Shown piece by piece: positions 4,205 to 57,756 of a stretch of 64,000 nt of DNA. The DNA comes from Halobaculum halobium (GTDB lineage: Archaea; Halobacteriota; Halobacteria; Halobacteriales; Haloferacaceae). The number at the start of each line of letters is the position of its first letter. Within the stretch, counting starts at the first letter, position 1. The notes under the pieces are model-generated. The model was not told where the DNA came from and did no database searches. It saw only the letters and a program-made list of their open reading frames with translations. The DNA is taken from assembly GCF_030127145.1 (NCBI RefSeq), contig NZ_CP126158.1:2542001-2606000 (forward strand). Reading direction: 5' to 3'. Both the position numbers and the translations under genes were made by a program.

Positions 4205-6970
4205 ATGAGCGATTCGCAGGCGGGCCTCGATCAGTTCGCCGGCCGCGAGGACGCCGAAGACGGGGACACAGACGGCGACCGCCCCGCCGAGGAGGCGGCG
4301 TACGTCGCGGGGGGCGGACAGGGGCGCGTGAGCGCGGTCGTCGACCGCGAAGACGTCGTCGTGCCCGATTCGACCGGCACGGTCGAGTTCATGGTCACCG
4401 CCGTCGACTACACCGTCGAGGGGGCCGGCGCCGAGGAGTATCCGGTTGTCCACGTGTTCGGCCGAACAGCCGACAACGAGCCGGAGCACGTCCGCGTGCT
4501 CGGGATCGAGCCGTACTTTTACGTCCCGACGGCCGACATCGCGGAGCGCGAACTCGCAGACGAGTACGACGTGATCCTCGACACTCGCAAGGAGGGACCC
4601 GACGGCGAGCGCTTCGAGTCGATTCGCGGCGAGCCGGTGACGAAGGTCGTCGCGCGCACGCCGCGGGACGTCGGCCAGATACGCGACGACTTCGCGCACA
4701 CCTACGAGGCGGACATCCTGTTCCCGAACCGCTTCCTCATCGATCACGACGTCACCTCGGGAGTGCGGGTCGAGGAGCGCCGCCTCGACGCCCGCGACGG
4801 GGAGGACCGGGGTCGCCTACAGGTGACACCCGAGCACCTCGAACCGGCAGACGTCGACGCCGACATCCGCGTAAATACGTTCGACATCGAGGTCGACGAC
4901 CGCAACGGCTTCCCGGAGGACGGGGAGGAGCCGATCGTCTGTCTCACCTCGCACGATTCCTACCGCGACGAGTACATCGCGTGGCTGTACGACGCCCCCG
5001 CCGGCGACGCACCCGCGCCGGCCGACCTCGGCGGCTACGAGCAGATCGGCGACGCGGACGGCGACATCGAGGTGCGGACGTTCGGCGACGAGGATGCGAT
5101 GCTCGACGCGTTCATCGGGTACATCGACGAAACCGACCCGGACGTTCTCACGGGCTGGAACTTCGAAGATTTCGACGCGCCGTACTTCATGGACCGCTGT
5201 GAGGAACTCGACGGCCGGAGCGAGCACGACCTCTCGCCAGACCGGCTCTCACGAGTGAACGAGACGTGGCGCTCCGGCTGGGGCGGGCCGGACGTGAAAG
5301 GCCGGGTCGTCTTCGACCTGTTGTACGCCTACCAGCGCACGCAGTTCACCGAGCTGGAATCGTACCGGCTCGACGCCGTCGGCGAACTCGAACTCGACGT
5401 GGGGAAAGAGCGCTACACCGGCGATATCGGCGATCTCTGGGAGGACGACCCCGAGCGACTGCTGGAGTACAACGTTCGCGACGTGGAGCTGTGCGTCGAG
5501 ATCGACCGCAAGCAGAAGATCGTGGCGTTCTGGGACGACGCGCGCAAGTTCGTCGGCTGCCAACTGGAGGACGCCCCGACGCCCGGCGACGCGGTCGACA
5601 TGTACGTCCTCCACAACGCCTTCGGTCAGTTCGTCCTCCCGACGAAGGGCCAGCAGGAGGGCGAGGACTTCGAGGGCGGCGCCGTCTTCGAGCCGATCTC
5701 TGGCGTCGAGGAGATGGTGTCGGTGCTGGACCTGAAGTCGCTGTACCCGATGTGCATGGTGACGATCAACGCCAGCCCCGAGACGATCGTCGAGGACCCC
5801 GACGCCTTCGACGGGGAGACGTACCGCGCGCCCAACGGCACCCGGTTCCGCAAGGAGCCCGACGGGATGATGCGCGAGATGGTCGACGAGCTGCTCACCG
5901 AGCGAGAACGGCTGAAGGGCGAGCGAAACGAACACGACCCGGGCTCGGACGCCTACGAGCAGTACGACCGACAGCAGGCGAGTGTGAAGGTGATCATGAA
6001 CTCTCTATACGGGGTCTCGGGCTGGGATCGGTTCCGCCTGTACGACAAGGACAACGCCGCCGCGATCACGGCGATGGGTCGGCGGGTCATCGAGTTCACC
6101 GAGGAGGCGGCCCGCGAGATAGATCACGACGTGACATACGGAGACACAGACAGCATTATGCTCGCCCTCGGAAGCGAGATCTCGACGGAGGAGGCGATCG
6201 AGCAGTCCTTCGAAATCGAGGAGCACATCAACGGACGGTACGACGACTTCGCGCTGGAGGAACTCGACGCCGAGGAGCATCGCTTCCAGATCGAGTTCGA
6301 GAAGCTGTACCGGCGGTTCTTCCAGGCGGGCAAGAAGAAGCGCTACGCCGGCCACATCGTCTGGAAGGAGGGCAAAGACGTCGACGACATCGACATCACC
6401 GGCTTCGAGTACAAGCGCTCTGACATCGCGCCCGTCACGAAACGGGTACAGAAGCGCGTCATCGAGATGATCGTCCACGGGGAGGACACCGAGGACATCA
6501 CCGACTACCTGCACGGGGAGATCCAGAGTTTCCTCGACGGCGACGCCGACCTCGACGAGGTGGGGATACCCGGCGGCATCGGGAAGCGACTGGAGAGCTA
6601 CGATACCGACACCGCCCAGGTCCGCGGCGCCAAGTACGCGAACCTCATGCTGGGTACCAACTTCCAGCGCGGATCGAAGCCGAAGCGGCTCTACCTGGAG
6701 AAGGTCCACCCCGATTTCTGGGCACGGATGGAAGACGAACACGGACTCGATCCACAGACGGATCCGCTGTACGGGGAGTTCAAGCGCGATCCCGACGTGA
6801 TCTGTTTCGAGTACGCCGACGAGGTGCCCGCGGAGTTTGCGGTGGACTGGGACAAGATGCTCGATAAAACGCTGAAGGGGCCGATCGCTCGGATCATCGA
6901 GGCGCTCGGCATGTCTTGGGACGAGGTCAAAAGCGGGCAAGAGCAGACCGGGCTCGGCAGCTTCATGTGA
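4205..6970 (+). CDS. polB: Family B replicative DNA polymerase (PolB)
   Basis: DNA-dependent DNA polymerase with 3'-5' proofreading, 921 residues from the ATG at 4205. The frame is open upstream to 3935 but loses haloarchaeal composition. Exonuclease motifs: FDIEVDD near 226, LTGWNFEDFD near 315 and YNVRDVELC near 421. Polymerase motifs: A, DLKSLYP near 510; B, KVIMNSLYG near 597; C, YGDTDS near 646. The acidic N-terminal 60 residues are a typical salt-adapted extension. Motifs B and C are contiguous, so no intein is present, although several haloarchaeal polB genes carry them there. Confidence 0.96.
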   Translation: MSDSQAGLDQFAGREDAEDGDTDGDRPAEEAAYVAGGGQGRVSAVVDREDVVVPDSTGTVEFMVTAVDYTVEGAGAEEYPVVHVFGRTADNEPEHVRVLGIEPYFYVPTADIAERELADEYDVILDTRKEGPDGERFESIRGEPVTKVVARTPRDVGQIRDDFAHTYEADILFPNRFLIDHDVTSGVRVEERRLDARDGEDRGRLQVTPEHLEPADVDADIRVNTFDIEVDDRNGFPEDGEEPIVCLTSHDSYRDEYIAWLYDAPAGDAPAPADLGGYEQIGDADGDIEVRTFGDEDAMLDAFIGYIDETDPDVLTGWNFEDFDAPYFMDRCEELDGRSEHDLSPDRLSRVNETWRSGWGGPDVKGRVVFDLLYAYQRTQFTELESYRLDAVGELELDVGKERYTGDIGDLWEDDPERLLEYNVRDVELCVEIDRKQKIVAFWDDARKFVGCQLEDAPTPGDAVDMYVLHNAFGQFVLPTKGQQEGEDFEGGAVFEPISGVEEMVSVLDLKSLYPMCMVTINASPETIVEDPDAFDGETYRAPNGTRFRKEPDGMMREMVDELLTERERLKGERNEHDPGSDAYEQYDRQQASVKVIMNSLYGVSGWDRFRLYDKDNAAAITAMGRRVIEFTEEAAREIDHDVTYGDTDSIMLALGSEISTEEAIEQSFEIEEHINGRYDDFALEELDAEEHRFQIEFEKLYRRFFQAGKKKRYAGHIVWKEGKDVDDIDITGFEYKRSDIAPVTKRVQKRVIEMIVHGEDTEDITDYLHGEIQSFLDGDADLDEVGIPGGIGKRLESYDTDTAQVRGAKYANLMLGTNFQRGSKPKRLYLEKVHPDFWARMEDEHGLDPQTDPLYGEFKRDPDVICFEYADEVPAEFAVDWDKMLDKTLKGPIARIIEALGMSWDEVKSGQEQTGLGSFM

Positions 6971-51146: not shown

Positions 51147-51980
51147 TCAGGCCGTCGGCACCGTCGCCGAGACTTCCTCCTCGAACGAGAGCGTCACGGC
51201 CCGACCGGGCGCGATGTCGAACGCCTCGTCGCCGCGTCCCTGGTTCGCGTCGCACTCGACGAAGCCGTGGCTGCCGACGGTGACGAGGGGGTCGTGTTTG
51301 TCCACGTCGGCGAACGTCTCGACGACCGGCACCTCGCGGACGCCGGCGGCGGTCTCGACGGCGATCGTCTCGCCGACGCGCCCCTCGAGGAAGTCGCCGG
51401 GGACGTTGGTGACCGCGTTGCCGAAGTCGTCGACGACGAGCACTTCGCCGGAGGCCGTGTCGGACTCGACCCAGGCGTCGGGGATCGCGTAGTCGTCGTA
51501 GTCGTCGGCGCGGACGAACCCCTCGAGCGACTCGATCGCGTCGACGCCGGCCTCGTGGACCCGGGCGGCTGCGGGCGCGAACACGTCGCGCCCGTGGAAC
51601 GTGCTGGACCGTGGATCGGGGTCGTCGACCGCGTACACGTCGATCGCGTCCGCGGGGTCGGCGTCGGGACCGACGTGCTCGGCCGCCAGCGCGCGGGCCG
51701 GCGGAAGCAGACAGCCGTTGTCTGGCCCGACGAGCGCGTGGTCGCCCGCGCGGACGCAGACGGCCGCACGGTCGGTCCCGACCCCGGGGTCGACGACGAC
51801 GAGGTGGACGCCGGGCGGGAACTCGGGGAGGACGAAGCGGAGCCAGAAGGCGGCCGCACGAGGGTCGCCCTGCGGGAGGTCGTGAGCGACGTCGACCAGG
51901 TCCGTGACGCCGCGCGAGCGGAGGACGCCCTTCATCGCGGCGGGGTACGGCGAACCGAAGTCGGAGGCGAGCGTCAGCAT
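51147..51980 (-). CDS. SAM hydrolase (adenosine-forming), DUF62 family
   Basis: S-adenosylmethionine hydroxide adenosyltransferase, splitting SAM to adenosine and methionine; relative of the fluorinase/chlorinase enzymes. 277 residues from ATG 51980. LTLASDFGSPYPAAMKG, VVVDPGVGTDRAAV, LVGPDNGCLLP and STFHGRDVFAPAAA are the family motifs; VVDDFGNAVTNVP marks the C-terminal domain. Middle gene of nadM-SAM hydrolase-TRIC. Confidence 0.9.
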   Translation of the reverse strand: MLTLASDFGSPYPAAMKGVLRSRGVTDLVDVAHDLPQGDPRAAAFWLRFVLPEFPPGVHLVVVDPGVGTDRAAVCVRAGDHALVGPDNGCLLPPARALAAEHVGPDADPADAIDVYAVDDPDPRSSTFHGRDVFAPAAARVHEAGVDAIESLEGFVRADDYDDYAIPDAWVESDTASGEVLVVDDFGNAVTNVPGDFLEGRVGETIAVETAAGVREVPVVETFADVDKHDPLVTVGSHGFVECDANQGRGDEAFDIAPGRAVTLSFEEEVSATVPTA

Positions 51981-51987
51981 TCGAAGG

Positions 51988-52551
51988 TCACGCCGGGTCG
52001 GCGGTTGATCCGTCGCGGTCCGTTTCGATCGACGCGTCCGCACCGTTGGCGTCCGAGGAGGACACCTGTCGGATGCGGTCGACGCCGTCGATCTCCTCGA
52101 TCGTCGCGACGACCTCGTCCGGCACGAGTGGCCTCCAGCCGTCGCCGCGGATCATGCGCTGGCGGAGTTCACTCCCCTCCAGCACCTCTCGACGGAACAT
52201 CGGCGAGGAGCGGACTTCGACGCCCGCTTCCTCGAACAGGCGGACGACGAGGGGGTTGTTCGAGTACGCCACGTCGAACTTCGGCGACATCGACTGGACG
52301 TGGCTCACCCACACCGAGTTGCGCTCGAGGTCCTCGATCGGAACCACGTACGTGGTCACGTCGAGATCGGCCAGCGACTTCGTCACCATCATCACGCGCT
52401 CGCCGGCGGTGAACGGGTTGCGATGGGTGTGGGAGTCGCCCGCCGACCCGATGCCGAGGACGAGTTCGTCCACGTCGTCGGCGATCTCCTCGACCATGTG
52501 GTGGTGGCCGTTGTGGTACGGCTGGAACCGCCCGATGTAGAACCCCCGCAT
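51988..52551 (-). CDS. nadM: Nicotinamide-nucleotide adenylyltransferase
   Basis: Archaeal NMN adenylyltransferase completing NAD synthesis. 187 residues: GRFQPYHNGHHHMVEEI at 7-23 (HxGH nucleotide site), GSAGDSHTHRNPFTAGER, and EGSELRQRMIRGDGW as the second motif. Acidic C-terminal tail. Gap of seven bases to the SAM hydrolase gene. A ttttaaa box on this strand 25-30 bases before the start supports a leaderless message. Confidence 0.94.
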   Translation of the reverse strand: MRGFYIGRFQPYHNGHHHMVEEIADDVDELVLGIGSAGDSHTHRNPFTAGERVMMVTKSLADLDVTTYVVPIEDLERNSVWVSHVQSMSPKFDVAYSNNPLVVRLFEEAGVEVRSSPMFRREVLEGSELRQRMIRGDGWRPLVPDEVVATIEEIDGVDRIRQVSSSDANGADASIETDRDGSTADPA

Positions 52552-52641: not shown

Positions 52642-52680
52642 CGCTCGGGCGAGCGCGGCTCACGGGGGGAGAAAGTATAT
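52642..52680 (+). promoter_or_regulatory. lonB promoter region with inverted repeat
   Basis: Perfect repeat cgctcg-gg-cgagcg at 52642-52655, followed by a TATA-like aagtatat at 52673-52680, 38-45 bases before the lonB ATG, implying a short leader. Confidence 0.45.
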
Positions 52681-52717
52681 GAATCGACAGACCCTGTTTC
52701 TCGGTAGTAACGATTCT

Positions 52718-54847
52718 ATGAGCAACGATCGAAACGACAGCCGGGACGGCGATGACGTCCTGGGCCCGGAGGACGCTCCTGCCGACGACGACCCCGAGTC
52801 GAACGGGATTGACGGCGGGAGATCCGGCGGGACCACCGGCGGCCGTTCGGTGGGCGCCTCCAACGATCCCTCCGACCAGGACGCCGACATCGACGACCTC
52901 GGGAGCGATGTCGAGATCGACGCGGAAATCGACGAGGAGATCGCCGAGGACCACCTCCTCGGCGGCCTCCAGATCGACTCGACCAACGACATCGAGGTCC
53001 CCGACCGGCTCGTAGACCAGGTGATCGGGCAAGAGCACGCCCGCGACGTCGTGATGAAGGCGGCAAAGCAGCGCCGCCACGTGATGATGATCGGCTCGCC
53101 CGGGACGGGTAAGTCGATGCTCGCGAAGGCGATGTCCGAGCTCCTCCCGAAAGAGGAACTGCAGGACGTGCTCGTGTACCACAACCCCGACGACGGCAAC
53201 AACCCCAAAGTGCGGACGGTGCCGGCGGGCAAGGGCGAACAGATCGTCGAGGCCCACAAGGAGGAGGCCAGAAAGCGCAACCAGATGCGCAGCTTCCTCA
53301 TGTGGATCATCATCGCGGTGGTGCTGGGCTACTCGCTGCTCGTCGTGAGCAACATCCTCCTCGGCATCCTCGCTGCCGGTATTATCTACCTCGCGTTCCG
53401 CTACGGCTCGCGCGGCAGCGACTCGATGATACCGAACCTCCTCGTCAACAACGCCGACGAGAAGTCGGCGCCGTTCGAGGACGCCACCGGCGCCCACGCC
53501 GGTGCGCTGCTGGGCGACGTCCGCCACGACCCGTTCCAGTCCGGCGGGATGGAGACGCCGAGTCACGACCGCGTCGAGGCCGGCGCCATCCACAAGTCGA
53601 ACAAAGGCGTGCTGTTCGTCGACGAGATCAACACCCTCGACATCCGGTCCCAGCAGAAGCTGATGACCGCGATCCAGGAGGGCGAGTTCTCGATCACGGG
53701 CCAGTCCGAGCGCTCCTCGGGCGCGATGGTCCAGACGGAGCCCGTCCCGACGGACTTCATCATGATCGCGGCGGGGAACCTCGACGCGATGGAGAACATG
53801 CATCCCGCGCTGCGCTCGCGGATCAAGGGGTACGGCTACGAGGTGTACATGGACGACACCATCGAGGACACCCCCGAGATGCGGCGCAAGTACGCCCGCT
53901 TCGTTGCCCAGGAGGTCGCGAAAGACGGGCGGCTTCCCGCCTTCAGCGAGGAGGCCATCGAGGAGGTCATCCTCACCGCCCGCCGCCGTGCGGGTCGGAA
54001 GGGCCATCTCACGCTGGAGCTGCGGAACCTCGGCGGACTCGTCCGCGTCTCGGGCGACATCGCCCGCGGCGAAGACGCCGACCGCGTCACTCGCGACCAC
54101 GTGCTCCAGGCGAAGGGTCGCTCGCGCTCCATCGAGCAGCAGCTCGCCGACGACTACATCGAGCGGCGCAAGGACTACGAACTGCAGGTCGCCGACGGCT
54201 ACCAGGTCGGTCGCGTCAACGGGCTCGCGGTCATGGGCGAGGACTCGGGTATCATGCTCCCCGTCATGGCCGAGGTCACACCCTCGCAGGGGCCCGGCCA
54301 GGTGATCGCCACCGGGCAGCTCCAAGAGATGGCCGAGGAGTCCGTCCAGAACGTCTCGGCGATCATCAAGAAGTTCTCCGACGAGGACATCACCGAGAAG
54401 GACATCCACATCCAGTTCATCCAGACCGGCCAACAGGGCGTCGACGGCGACTCGGCGTCGATCACGGTCGCGACGGCCGTCATCTCCGCGCTGGAGGAGA
54501 TGGGCGTCGATCAGAACCTCGCCATGACCGGCTCGCTGTCGGTCCGTGGCGACGTGCTCCCGGTCGGCGGCGTCACCCACAAGATCGAGGCCGCCGCCAA
54601 GTCCGGCTGCAGCCGGGTCATCATCCCCAAGGCGAACGAGCAGGACGTGATGATCGAAGACGAGTACAAGGAGATGATCGAGATCATCCCGGTCTCGCAC
54701 ATCTCGGAGGTGCTCGACATCGCGCTGGAGGGCGAGCCCGAGAAGGACTCGCTCGTCGACCGCCTCAAGAGCATCACCGGCTCCGCGCTCGAGAAGACGG
54801 GCGAGGGCGCCGGCACCGCGGGCCCGACCAGCCCCAGCCCGCAGTAG
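52718..54847 (+). CDS. lonB: Membrane-anchored Lon protease (LonB)
   Basis: ATP-dependent AAA+ serine protease with a membrane anchor, 709 residues from ATG 52718. Acidic N-terminus; Walker A GSPGTGKSMLAKAM near 127-133; two adjacent membrane helices at about 195-230 (WIIIAVVLGYSLLVVSNILL) inserted in the AAA module; Walker B GVLFVDEIN; protease domain with catalytic Ser579 (GDSAS) and Lys622 (THKIEAA), spaced by 43. An ATG at 52679 overlaps the TATA box and is unlikely to be used. Essential quality-control protease in haloarchaea by published work. Confidence 0.95.
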   Translation: MSNDRNDSRDGDDVLGPEDAPADDDPESNGIDGGRSGGTTGGRSVGASNDPSDQDADIDDLGSDVEIDAEIDEEIAEDHLLGGLQIDSTNDIEVPDRLVDQVIGQEHARDVVMKAAKQRRHVMMIGSPGTGKSMLAKAMSELLPKEELQDVLVYHNPDDGNNPKVRTVPAGKGEQIVEAHKEEARKRNQMRSFLMWIIIAVVLGYSLLVVSNILLGILAAGIIYLAFRYGSRGSDSMIPNLLVNNADEKSAPFEDATGAHAGALLGDVRHDPFQSGGMETPSHDRVEAGAIHKSNKGVLFVDEINTLDIRSQQKLMTAIQEGEFSITGQSERSSGAMVQTEPVPTDFIMIAAGNLDAMENMHPALRSRIKGYGYEVYMDDTIEDTPEMRRKYARFVAQEVAKDGRLPAFSEEAIEEVILTARRRAGRKGHLTLELRNLGGLVRVSGDIARGEDADRVTRDHVLQAKGRSRSIEQQLADDYIERRKDYELQVADGYQVGRVNGLAVMGEDSGIMLPVMAEVTPSQGPGQVIATGQLQEMAEESVQNVSAIIKKFSDEDITEKDIHIQFIQTGQQGVDGDSASITVATAVISALEEMGVDQNLAMTGSLSVRGDVLPVGGVTHKIEAAAKSGCSRVIIPKANEQDVMIEDEYKEMIEIIPVSHISEVLDIALEGEPEKDSLVDRLKSITGSALEKTGEGAGTAGPTSPSPQ

Positions 54848-54856
54848 CGACCGGAC

Positions 54857-55713
54857 GTGACGCGCTGGACGGCGTTCGCGGGGCTGGCGACCGTCGTCCT
54901 GATTCTGCTCTTGGGCCTCGCGCGCCTGTCGGAGGCCCGAGTCGCACCGCACCCTGAGCCCTCGGCTCGCGACGGCACCGGGCGCGCGGATGACGCGCCG
55001 GAGGACCCCGGGCCCGCGACCAGAGGGCCGTCCCACTTGGGACCGGGCGACGGTCCGGACCGGACGCTCGCGTCCCCCGAGCGCAGCCCCGTCGCCGCCG
55101 CGGAGGCGGACGCGTCGCTGTCGGCGGGGGCGCTGCTCGCCAACGTCGCGCTCTCTCAGGGCTTGTTCGGCGCGGTGCTCGTCGCGGCCGCGCTGTGGGC
55201 GGACGTACCCGCCGCGGCGCTCGGGCTCGCGCCGGTCGCGACGGCGACGGACGCGGGGATCGGCGTCGGCCTCGGCGTCGCGCTGTGGCTCGCTGCGAGG
55301 CGGGCGGGCGATTCGCCGAGCGCGTCGGCGTCGAGGTGAACGAGGCGCTGCGCGGCGCGCTCGCGCCTGACTCGGTCGGCGGCTGGGCGGTGCTGCTGTT
55401 CGCTGTCCTGCCGACGGTCGCGCTGTTCGAGGAGTTCCTCTTTCGCGCCGTCCTCGTCGGTGCGTTCGCCGCTGGCGCGGCCGCGACCGGCGTCCCCGCG
55501 TCGCCGTGGCTGCTCGCGGCAGGCTCCTCGGTCGCATTCGCGCTGGGGCACGGAGCGCAGGGGCGAGCGGGCGTCGTCGCCACGGGAGCGCTGGGGTTCG
55601 TTCTCGCGGCAGCGTTCCTCCTCACCGAAAGCTTGCTGGCGGTCGTCATCGCTCACTACTTGGTGAACGCGCTCACGTTCGTCGTCCACGAAGGGATCGG
55701 CGTCGGCCGGTGA
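54857..55713 (+). pseudogene. CPBP (CAAX-type) intramembrane protease, frameshifted
   Basis: Ten bases after lonB, from GTG 54857. Frame one: TM helix near 5-25, Pro/Gly-rich loop, then ALSQGLFGAVLVAAALWADV and GVALWLAARRAG. The other frame continues GRFAERVGVEVNEALRGAL with CPBP motifs LFEEFLFRAVLVG (EE-x3-R), FALGHGAQ and IAHYLVNAL. The switch is at the gcgggcgggcg stretch 55300-55310. One added base restores about 285 residues. Either recent inactivation or a missed base. Confidence 0.83.
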
Positions 55714-56274: not shown

Positions 56275-56784
56275 TCAGATCCCCTCGATCTCCCTGAGCC
56301 GTGCGGCGACGGCCTCGGGCGTCGCGCCCGCCGCGTTCCGCACCCGGTGGTCCGGGATCACGATCGGTACCGGGTTCGCCCGCAGCGCCTCGCGGGCTGT
56401 CTCCAGATCGGCATCGTCCTCGTGATCGAGATCGGCGGTCATCTTCGCCACGCGTTCGAGGTCGATCGCCTCGCCGTAGGGAATGTTCCGAACCGACTCC
56501 AGCACCGACCGCTGGGCCGTCGGGACGGTTATCGCGATCTCCAGGTCGGCGAAATCGTCCTCGGCGCCGGCGACGTATTCGTCGAGGCGGTCCAGCAGGG
56601 GGTGCTCGCTGTCCACGTCCCCCGAGAGATCCTCGGCGAACGAGACGGAAATGAGTCGACCGCTCGCGGTCCCCAGCTCCAGCACCCGATCGATCGCGTC
56701 GAATCGACGCCCGAACACGCCCGTGTCGCTCACGCCGCCCGCCTCCGAGCTGTCGTCCCCGTCGCCGCCGAGAAAGTCCGTCAT
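56275..56784 (-). CDS. MGMT-family protein lacking the acceptor cysteine
   Basis: 169 residues from ATG 56784. The C-terminal 85 residues match the DNA-binding domain of methylated-DNA-protein cysteine methyltransferase: RSVLESVRNIPYGEAIDLERVAKM and NPVPIVIPDHRVRNAAGA. The acceptor motif PCHRV reads PDHRV: codon 145 is GAC, Asp. It therefore cannot accept alkyl groups and resembles alkyltransferase-like (ATL) proteins, which bind damage and recruit repair. The N-terminal domain is acidic and poorly conserved. Divergent from trpC. Confidence 0.85.
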   Translation of the reverse strand: MTDFLGGDGDDSSEAGGVSDTGVFGRRFDAIDRVLELGTASGRLISVSFAEDLSGDVDSEHPLLDRLDEYVAGAEDDFADLEIAITVPTAQRSVLESVRNIPYGEAIDLERVAKMTADLDHEDDADLETAREALRANPVPIVIPDHRVRNAAGATPEAVAARLREIEGI

Positions 56785-56949: not shown

Positions 56950-57756
56950 ATGAACACACGATCCGAGGAACTCGCGCCGGCGGTGCGATCGATCCTCGAT
57001 GCCGCGGCCGACCGACCGGGAGGCGACGAGCGCGTCGCCGTCGACGCGCGGTCGCTGTCGACCGCGTTCGCGACCGCGGAGGCCGACGGGCGGGTTCCGG
57101 TCATCGCGGAGGTGAAGCCGACGAGCCCGACGACCGACGGGGCGCGCCGCGAGGACCCGGTCGACCTCGCCGAGTCGATGGTCGCCGGCGGCGCCGCGGC
57201 GCTGTCGGTGCTGACCGAACCGGAGCACTTCGGCGGCTCGCTCGACACGCTCGACCGGGTTCGCGCGGCGGTCGACGTTCCCGTCCTGCGCAAGGACTTC
57301 CTCGTGCGCGAGGACCAGTTGGACGCCGTCGAGGCCGACCTCGTGCTCCTCATCGCCCGGTTCGTCGGGGACGACCTCGCGGATCTCGTCGCGGCGGCCC
57401 GCGACCGCGGCTTCCAGCCGCTCGTGGAGGTCCACACGCGCGAGGAACTCGCGGCGGCGTTGGCGGCCGGCGCGGAGCTGATCGGCGTCAACAACCGGGA
57501 CCTCGGAAAACTCGCGGTCGACCTCTCGACGTTCGAGGCGATCGCACCGGAGGTTCCCGACGGAGTGACGCTGATCGCAGAGTCGGGGATCGCGACGCCC
57601 GCGGACGTCCAGCGGATGCGCGACGCCGGGGCCGACGGGCTGCTCATCGGCTCGGCGATCATGGACGCGGAGGGGACCGACGAGGCGGGCACCGGCGGCG
57701 ACGTTTCTGCCAACACCCGTCGGTTTACGGCCGCGGAGACGGAGGAGGAGGTATGA
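56950..57756 (+). CDS. trpC: Indole-3-glycerol-phosphate synthase
   Basis: Tryptophan pathway TIM-barrel enzyme, 268 residues. [14 protein letters not shown] (catalytic Glu and Lys), [55 protein letters not shown] and [10 protein letters not shown] are the family blocks. The TATA-like cttttg about 28 bases before the ATG indicates a leaderless start. Overlaps trpB by four bases (ATGA). Confidence 0.95.

What the first reader, a model, noticed from the sequence alone, without database searches (positions are those of the whole stretch)
56275..56784. MGMT homologue with Asp in place of the acceptor Cys
Codon 145 is GAC, giving PDHRV. Known ATL proteins mostly have Trp or Ala there, so Asp is unusual and could even give a charged or catalytic pocket. 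The rest of the DNA-binding domain is kept, arguing for a kept function in damage recognition.
Basis: partly seen in the sequence, partly recalled or inferred. Interest (0 to 1): 0.5.

Follow-up and report, generated by a model that had tools for sequence, protein, structure and literature searches.

The report
Retired MGMT kept by haloarchaea
This gene is the haloarchaeal version of a DNA-repair protein (MGMT) that has lost its reactive cysteine and several of its damage-grabbing parts, yet nearly every haloarchaeon examined keeps it, so it probably has a different, still unknown job.

Summary
Window 56275-56784 (minus) encodes a 169-aa PF01035 protein with GAC (Asp) at codon 145, where MGMT has its acceptor Cys. 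It is class-wide: 390 of 391 Halobacteria genomes searched match it, and of 172 distinct main-branch sequences 160 have Asp, 5 Ser, 5 Thr, 1 Ala, 1 Gly; none Cys or Trp. Four deep orthologues keep the base-flipping Tyr and a longer loop, with Cys (2) or Ser (2).

The claim that the rest of the DNA-binding domain is kept fails: the flipping Tyr is gone in 172 of 172, the Arg-finger position is Arg in 26 of 172, the lesion loop is shortened. It is no ATL either: it has the N-terminal domain and Asn hinge that ATLs lack. It is under purifying selection with its own conserved residues (T89, R164). This genome has a second, PCHRV MGMT, but none was detected in 76 of 116 haloarchaea. Best reading: an MGMT that lost alkyl transfer and was repurposed as a non-covalent binding protein; its ligand is unknown. 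New variant of a known kind.

The parts
56275..56784 (-). Gene: 169-aa two-domain MGMT-fold protein without acceptor Cys (stop codon included)
   Evidence: AlphaFold2 mean pLDDT 91.1; nearest solved fold S. solfataricus OGT 4zyd, Z 17.8, 139 residues aligned, rmsd 2.0
56533..56730 (-). N-terminal domain, about residues 19-84 (boundary is my estimate), present in AGTs and absent from ATLs
   Evidence: fold alignments with AGTs run from model residue 19-23 to 169; ATL definition from PMC10779285 section 10
56278..56532 (-). C-terminal DNA-binding-domain homologue, about residues 85-169
   Evidence: PF01035 residues 90-155; S. pombe ATL 3gva aligns only here, residues 86-169, 74 aligned, Z 8.8, rmsd 2.4
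56350..56352 (-). Codon 145 GAC, Asp in place of the acceptor Cys
   Evidence: D 160, T 5, S 5, A 1, G 1 of 172
56344..56349 (-). H146-R147, retained from the PCHR motif
   Evidence: 172 of 172 each
56374..56376 (-). N137, Asn hinge, retained
   Evidence: 172 of 172
56458..56460 (-). L109, at the position of the base-flipping Tyr (human Y114)
   Evidence: Tyr in 0 of 172 of the main branch, 4 of 4 deep orthologues, 33 of 33 haloarchaeal and 20 of 20 other Cys-type MGMTs
56401..56403 (-). E128, at the position of the Arg finger (human R128)
   Evidence: Arg in 26 of 172; 19 of 20 in other Halobacteriota MGMTs; also absent from haloarchaeal Cys-type MGMTs (0 of 33)
56392..56394 (-). R131 in the recognition helix, where canonical MGMT has Gly
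   Evidence: Arg in 147 of 172 and in 4 of 4 deep orthologues; Gly in 33 of 33 and 19 of 20 canonical ones
56518..56520 (-). T89, branch-specific conserved residue
   Evidence: 169 of 172; Gly in 4 of 4 deep orthologues
56293..56295 (-). R164, branch-specific conserved residue in the last helix, three residues before E167
   Evidence: 167 of 172; Leu in 4 of 4 deep orthologues
56284..56286 (-). E167, equivalent of catalytic Glu172, retained
   Evidence: 170 of 172, the other 2 rows gapped there
56950..57756 (+). trpC (IGPS), divergent conserved neighbour (context only)
   Evidence: PF00218; homologue in 15 of 26 regions of up to about 5 kb either side, the window included
52679..54847 (+). LonB protease, conserved neighbour (context only)
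   Evidence: PF05362, PF20436; in 16 of 26 regions, among them L131-L133 with deep Cys/Ser orthologues

Best explanation
It is the vertically inherited MGMT/Ogt of the Halobacteria, which lost alkyl transfer early in the class and was kept for another job. Shown by sequence: no acceptor Cys, no flipping Tyr, a shortened lesion loop, a freely varying Arg-finger position; the Asn hinge, H146, R147 and E167 fixed or nearly so; new conserved residues T89 and R164; near-universal retention and purifying selection. Inferred: the protein works without covalent capture. Its old pocket has become a polar, usually acidic site built around D145-H146-R147, N137, E167 and perhaps R164, which binds a ligand or partner other than a flipped O6-alkylguanine. 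What it binds is not known; nucleic acid through the altered helix (R131) and a protein or small molecule are both open.
For: 390 of 391 class genomes have a match, the weakest at E 7.3e-13. Residue counts. Tree of 118 rows (78 of the 172 main-branch sequences, chosen one per genus plus all non-Asp ones; 16 of 33 haloarchaeal Cys-type): the 78 form one clade (SH-aLRT 99*), joined to the 4 deep Cys/Ser orthologues at 100*, apart from the haloarchaeal Cys-type MGMTs (100*). Deep orthologues share the N-terminal domain sequence, and three of the four (L131-L133) lie near LonB and NadM-like homologues. Two-domain AGT fold predicted. dN/dS 0.16-0.40 in 15 congener pairs. Where a genome has a second PF01035 copy, transferase activity can be covered by it: 39 of 116 genomes have two, and in all 31 of those 39 that I read the second copy has Cys.
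Against: No activity or binding was measured. 76 of 116 genomes show no Cys-type MGMT (my count from its rows), which could mean that this protein still handles O6-alkylguanine in some way. R131 is conserved (147 of 172), so a nucleic-acid role is possible. Acidity of the HTH region does not separate the branch from the deep orthologues, two of which have Cys (mean net charge -4.3 against -6.0). The Arg finger is also missing from the haloarchaeal Cys-type MGMTs (0 of 33), so its loss alone proves little.
Confidence: 0.6

Rival explanations
1. It works like an ATL: a non-enzymatic sensor that still binds O6-alkylguanine, by a changed set of contacts, and hands it to the UvrABC excision system.
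For: No acceptor Cys; no Cys-type MGMT detected in 76 of 116 haloarchaea. UvrB is over its cut-off in 8 of 8 main-branch genomes tested and 0 of 4 deep genomes; UvrA in 4 of 4 against 0 of 4. Atl1 and E. coli ATL interact with UvrA (PMC10779285).
Against: The residues ATLs use are gone: Tyr 0 of 172, Arg finger 26 of 172, shortened loop. The ATL hallmarks of no N-terminal domain and no Asn hinge are not met. The UvrAB contrast is a single event on the tree, and two of the four deep genomes already have Ser without UvrAB.
Confidence: 0.25
2. Asp145 is catalytic: the carboxylate takes the alkyl group as an ester or activates water with H146 and E167, making a turnover dealkylase or another hydrolase.
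For: Asp in 160 of 172; the His-Glu relay kept (172 and 170 of 172); no Cys-type MGMT detected in 76 of 116 genomes.
Against: Ser, Thr, Ala or Gly at the position in 12 of 172, in several branches of the tree, with the rest of the site little changed. Base-flipping Tyr lost.
Confidence: 0.07
3. It is a DNA- or RNA-binding protein without lesion specificity (regulator or architectural), using the HTH with R131.
For: The C-terminal domain with its helices is predicted with high confidence; R131 in 147 of 172.
Against: Other helix positions that lie towards DNA in MGMT (recalled) vary freely, with charge reversals (128, 132, 135, 136); acidic turn before the helix.
Confidence: 0.15
4. Sequencing error, pseudogene or drift.
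For: A neighbouring CAAX-protease gene in this window is split over two frames.
Against: Asp in 160 of 172 relatives; 390 of 391 genomes have a match; dN/dS 0.16-0.40.
Confidence: 0.01

Closest known systems
O6-alkylguanine-DNA alkyltransferase (AGT/MGMT/Ogt), e.g. S. solfataricus OGT (PDB 4zyd) and human MGMT
   Same: Two-domain fold (4zyd: Z 17.8, rmsd 2.0, 139 residues, 21% identity), Asn hinge, P-x-HR motif, Glu172 equivalent.
   Different: No acceptor Cys, no flipping Tyr, shorter active-site loop, Arg finger not kept, Gly131 replaced by Arg, branch-specific T89 and R164.
Alkyltransferase-like proteins (ATL; S. pombe Atl1, E. coli Atl)
   Same: C-terminal domain fold (3gva: Z 8.8, 74 residues) without the acceptor Cys.
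   Different: ATLs lack the N-terminal domain and Asn hinge, keep Tyr and the Arg finger, mostly have Trp and carry a C-terminal extension (PMC10779285 section 10); this protein differs on each of these points.
Haloarchaeal Cys-type MGMT (second copy; L001 in this genome)
   Same: PF01035, same genome, PxHRV motif.
   Different: PCHRV with Tyr and Gly131; separate clade (100*); a second copy in 39 of 116 genomes.
Philodulcilactobacillus PDHRV protein (L039)
   Same: Asp at the acceptor position.
   Different: Keeps the Tyr and a longer glycine loop; bacterial; an independent change seems likely but was not tested.

Membership tests
AGT/MGMT (active O6-alkylguanine-DNA alkyltransferase) | AGT fold with N- and C-terminal domains | tested here: met
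   AlphaFold2 model against PDB: Z 17.8 to 4zyd, model residues 21-169
AGT/MGMT (active O6-alkylguanine-DNA alkyltransferase) | Nucleophilic Cys in the PCHR motif | tested here: not met
   Asp here; Cys 0 of 172 in the main branch, 2 of 4 in the deep orthologues
AGT/MGMT (active O6-alkylguanine-DNA alkyltransferase) | Base-flipping Tyr (or Phe in some species) | tested here: not met
   Leu here; Tyr 0 of 172, Phe 1 of 172
AGT/MGMT (active O6-alkylguanine-DNA alkyltransferase) | Asn hinge and His-Glu relay | tested here: met
   N137 and H146 172 of 172, E167 170 of 172 with 2 rows gapped
AGT/MGMT (active O6-alkylguanine-DNA alkyltransferase) | Alkyl transfer activity | not testable with these tools
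   No assay
Alkyltransferase-like protein (ATL) | Acceptor Cys replaced (Trp in most) | tested here: met
   Replaced, but by Asp; Trp 0 of 172
Alkyltransferase-like protein (ATL) | No N-terminal domain | tested here: not met
   N-terminal domain present and aligned with AGTs; ATL definition
Alkyltransferase-like protein (ATL) | HTH with Arg finger and Tyr kept | tested here: not met
   Glu and Leu here; Arg 26 of 172, Tyr 0 of 172
Alkyltransferase-like protein (ATL) | Asn hinge absent | tested here: not met
   N137 present, 172 of 172
Alkyltransferase-like protein (ATL) | C-terminal extension loop | tested here: not met
   The window protein ends two residues after E167; some congeners run about four residues further
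Alkyltransferase-like protein (ATL) | Tight binding of O6-alkylguanine DNA and hand-off to NER | not testable with these tools
   Only UvrA/UvrB co-occurrence could be seen

The most novel reading that the evidence does not exclude
In the haloarchaea with no detected Cys-type MGMT (76 of 116), the PDHR protein is a true turnover enzyme: Asp145, activated by H146-E167 and held by R164, removes alkyl groups (or hydrolyses another modified nucleotide or metabolite) without suicide, a catalytic successor of a suicide repair protein.
Probability: 0.06. Interest if true: 0.85.

Novelty: new variant of a known kind. Interest (0 to 1): 0.45.

Why it matters
A protein kept by nearly every haloarchaeon searched matches the MGMT domain family but cannot be an MGMT by the known mechanism, and it does not fit the ATL definition either. 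Domain matching alone would credit O6-alkylguanine repair to genomes that may have none (76 of 116 show no Cys-type MGMT). The deep lineages with Cys and Ser leave the transition visible, so the loss of a suicide enzyme and the rise of its new role can be studied step by step.

Tried and rejected
Base error or pseudogene: rejected by the counts across relatives and by dN/dS.

ATL membership: rejected on tested features.

Acidity of the HTH region as proof of lost DNA binding: dropped, because the deep orthologues, two of them with Cys, are as acidic.

Arg-finger loss as proof: weakened, because haloarchaeal Cys-type MGMTs lack it too (0 of 33).

Salt bridge D145-R164: looked for covariation. 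Of 12 non-Asp rows 11 keep R164; of 5 rows without R164 (one of them a gap) 4 keep Asp; so no support.

trp-operon function: the neighbourhood is conserved, but the four deep regions show no homologue of the trpC, trpB or trpA clusters in the stretch held, and three of them have LonB and NadM-like homologues, so it looks like old gene order. The ORF filter was lossy: in 5 of 26 regions it did not list the focal gene itself. PMC4162585 (passages only) describes the trpCBA operon and had no hit for the three neighbouring ORF numbers I guessed.

Counting slips found and replaced: the R128 column was really human position 135, replaced. The Tyr pattern misread 12 haloarchaeal Cys-type rows and left a few others unread, replaced by the alignment count. 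The E172 row is empty for haloarchaeal Cys-type MGMTs and for 14 of 20 others because those rows are cut short, so it says nothing about them. The main branch (score over 140) and deep group (80-140) were split at a gap in profile scores, 115.5 to 148.8. Rows without a PxHR match and identical rows were dropped before the counts.

Papers: ten searches listed no paper on an Asp-type haloarchaeal MGMT that I could recognise from titles and abstract starts; several listings were capped. PMC10779285 was read as passages and one whole section; PMC4162585, PMC10470531, PMC5626843 and PMC7216122 as term searches only. The library holds open-licence PMC papers only, so this is weak evidence of absence in print.

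Full report
What is there. The minus-strand ORF at 56275-56784 encodes 169 residues with PDHRV at 144-148; codon 145 is GAC at 56350-56352. The first 20 residues are predicted with low confidence (block means 57 and 54); the rest gives a confident two-domain AGT fold (mean pLDDT 91.1). In the second-look structural alignment, archaeal, bacterial and human alkyltransferases align over both domains, best S. solfataricus OGT with DNA at Z 17.8, rmsd 2.0, 139 residues. S. pombe ATL aligns only with the C-terminal half (Z 8.8, rmsd 2.4, 74 residues). Foldseek gives the same order: 37 matches at E up to 0.001 are alkyltransferases or tags made from them, and the best ATL stands at E 0.12. Pfam PF01035 matches at 35.5 bits, cut-off 27.

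How widespread. The window protein finds a match in 390 of 391 Halobacteria genomes, and in 377 of 377 of those at least 90% complete with at most 5% contamination. The single miss, G340, is 88% complete and has a congener, G304, with the gene. I collected sequences from 176 genomes or records. After identical rows were removed they give 172 sequences of the main branch (profile score over 140) and 4 of a deep branch. Acceptor position in the 172: Asp 160, Thr 5, Ser 5, Ala 1, Gly 1. In the 81 Halobacteria: Asp 78, Ser 2, Cys 1 (one search counts 80; the 81st, G040, is Asp). Asp therefore is the rule of the class, with Thr, Ser, Ala or Gly scattered on the tree: of the coded families sampled, f1, f4, f6, f7 and f8 had Asp only (70, 25, 5, 5 and 5 genomes), while f2, f3, f9 and f10 had exceptions.

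Where it comes from. A quick maximum-likelihood tree of 118 proteins (78 of 172 main-branch rows, 4 deep, 16 of 33 haloarchaeal Cys-type, 20 other Halobacteriota) puts the 78 main-branch rows in one clade (SH-aLRT 99*), and these with the four deep rows in another (100*). The haloarchaeal Cys-type MGMTs form a separate clade (100*). The rooting is weak, and the deep rows as a group have only 49. The deep rows come from two families with small genomes, f5 (G021) and f11 (G286, G382, G218). G021 and G286 have PCHRV, G382 and G218 have PSHR[VI]; all four keep the Tyr and the longer loop. They share the N-terminal sequence style of the main branch. The three f11 regions (L131-L133) hold LonB and NadM-like homologues near the gene, as the window does, though with that block turned round; the f5 region (L130) does not show them. 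Each deep genome has only one PF01035 match. The simplest history is an ordinary MGMT inherited vertically, whose Cys was lost inside the class.

What was lost and gained. Using rows anchored on Asn137 and an alignment of 229 rows: the flipping Tyr is present in 0 of 172 main-branch rows, 4 of 4 deep, 33 of 33 haloarchaeal Cys-type and 20 of 20 other Halobacteriota MGMTs. The Arg-finger position is Arg in 26 of 172 and 19 of 20 other MGMTs, but in 0 of 33 haloarchaeal Cys-type ones, so it is not decisive. Between R147 and the Glu172 equivalent lie 19 residues (164 of 170 rows measured; 18 in the other 6) against 23 in 4 of 4 deep rows. Kept: P144, N137, H146 and R147 in 172 of 172, E167 in 170 of 172. 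Gained relative to the deep rows: T89 (169 of 172), R164 (167 of 172), P88 (160 of 172), H61 (159 of 172). R131 in the recognition helix, where canonical MGMT has Gly, is Arg in 147 of 172 and already in the 4 deep rows. Purifying selection holds among six congeners (dN/dS 0.16-0.40 over 15 pairs). This is what a changed function looks like, not decay.

Repair context. This genome carries a second, PCHRV-type MGMT. In 116 Halobacteria scanned with PF01035, 39 have two matches; in the 31 of these 39 that I read, the second copy has Cys, and in the other 8 it scores 62-91 bits, far above the Asp type. One of the rest (G021) has the deep Cys gene. That leaves 76 with no detectable Cys-type MGMT, of which one (G052) showed no PF01035 match although it has the Asp-type gene (the 76 is my count from the rows). 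UvrB is over its cut-off in 8 of 8 main-branch genomes tested and 0 of 4 deep ones; UvrA in 4 of 4 and 0 of 4; the deep genomes show only weak partial matches. Each search was over its cut-off in 12 of 14 control genomes. This fits an ATL-like hand-off to excision repair, but it is one contrast on the tree, two deep genomes lost Cys without UvrAB, and three of the four deep genomes are 88-92% complete.

What it is and is not. By the published description of ATLs (PMC10779285 section 10) they have no N-terminal domain, keep the Arg finger and Tyr, lack the Asn hinge, mostly carry Trp and have a C-terminal extension. This protein fails the domain, Tyr/Arg, hinge and extension tests. It also fails the Cys test of an active AGT. 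It is best filed as a Cys-less haloarchaeal branch of the AGT superfamily, with the active-site shell kept and rebuilt. I think it works by non-covalent binding in or near the old pocket (0.6). An ATL-like lesion sensor with new contacts is next (0.25), then a plain nucleic-acid binder (0.15), and a catalytic Asp is the bold outsider (0.07). These overlap in part and are not meant to add to one.

Limits.

Noticed in passing
54857-55339 and 55195-55713 (+): The CAAX (Rce1-like) protease gene, one ORF in the 12 relatives used as queries, lies in two different frames here: 10 of the 12 match both halves, in frames 1 and 3, and 2 match only the second half. A frameshift or a sequencing error in the window genome.
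   Followed up: partly
L039 (Philodulcilactobacillus myokoensis), 4743-5258: A bacterial MGMT-family protein with PDHRV that keeps the Tyr and a longer glycine loop: perhaps an independent Cys-to-Asp change and a truer ATL-like protein.
   Followed up: no
G021, G286, G382, G218: Deep haloarchaeal lineages with small genomes show no UvrA or UvrB over the cut-offs, unlike the main-branch haloarchaea tested (4 of 4 for UvrA, 8 of 8 for UvrB).
   Followed up: partly
51150-52043 (-) and 51988-52551 (-): A SAM hydroxide adenosyltransferase and a cytidylyltransferase-like (NadM-like, name recalled) gene beside LonB; homologues in 7 and 13 of 26 regions compared.
   Followed up: partly
L001 and L137-L166: Haloarchaeal Cys-type MGMTs themselves lack Arg at the Arg-finger position (0 of 33; Val, Ile or Gln), yet keep Cys and Tyr.
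   Followed up: no
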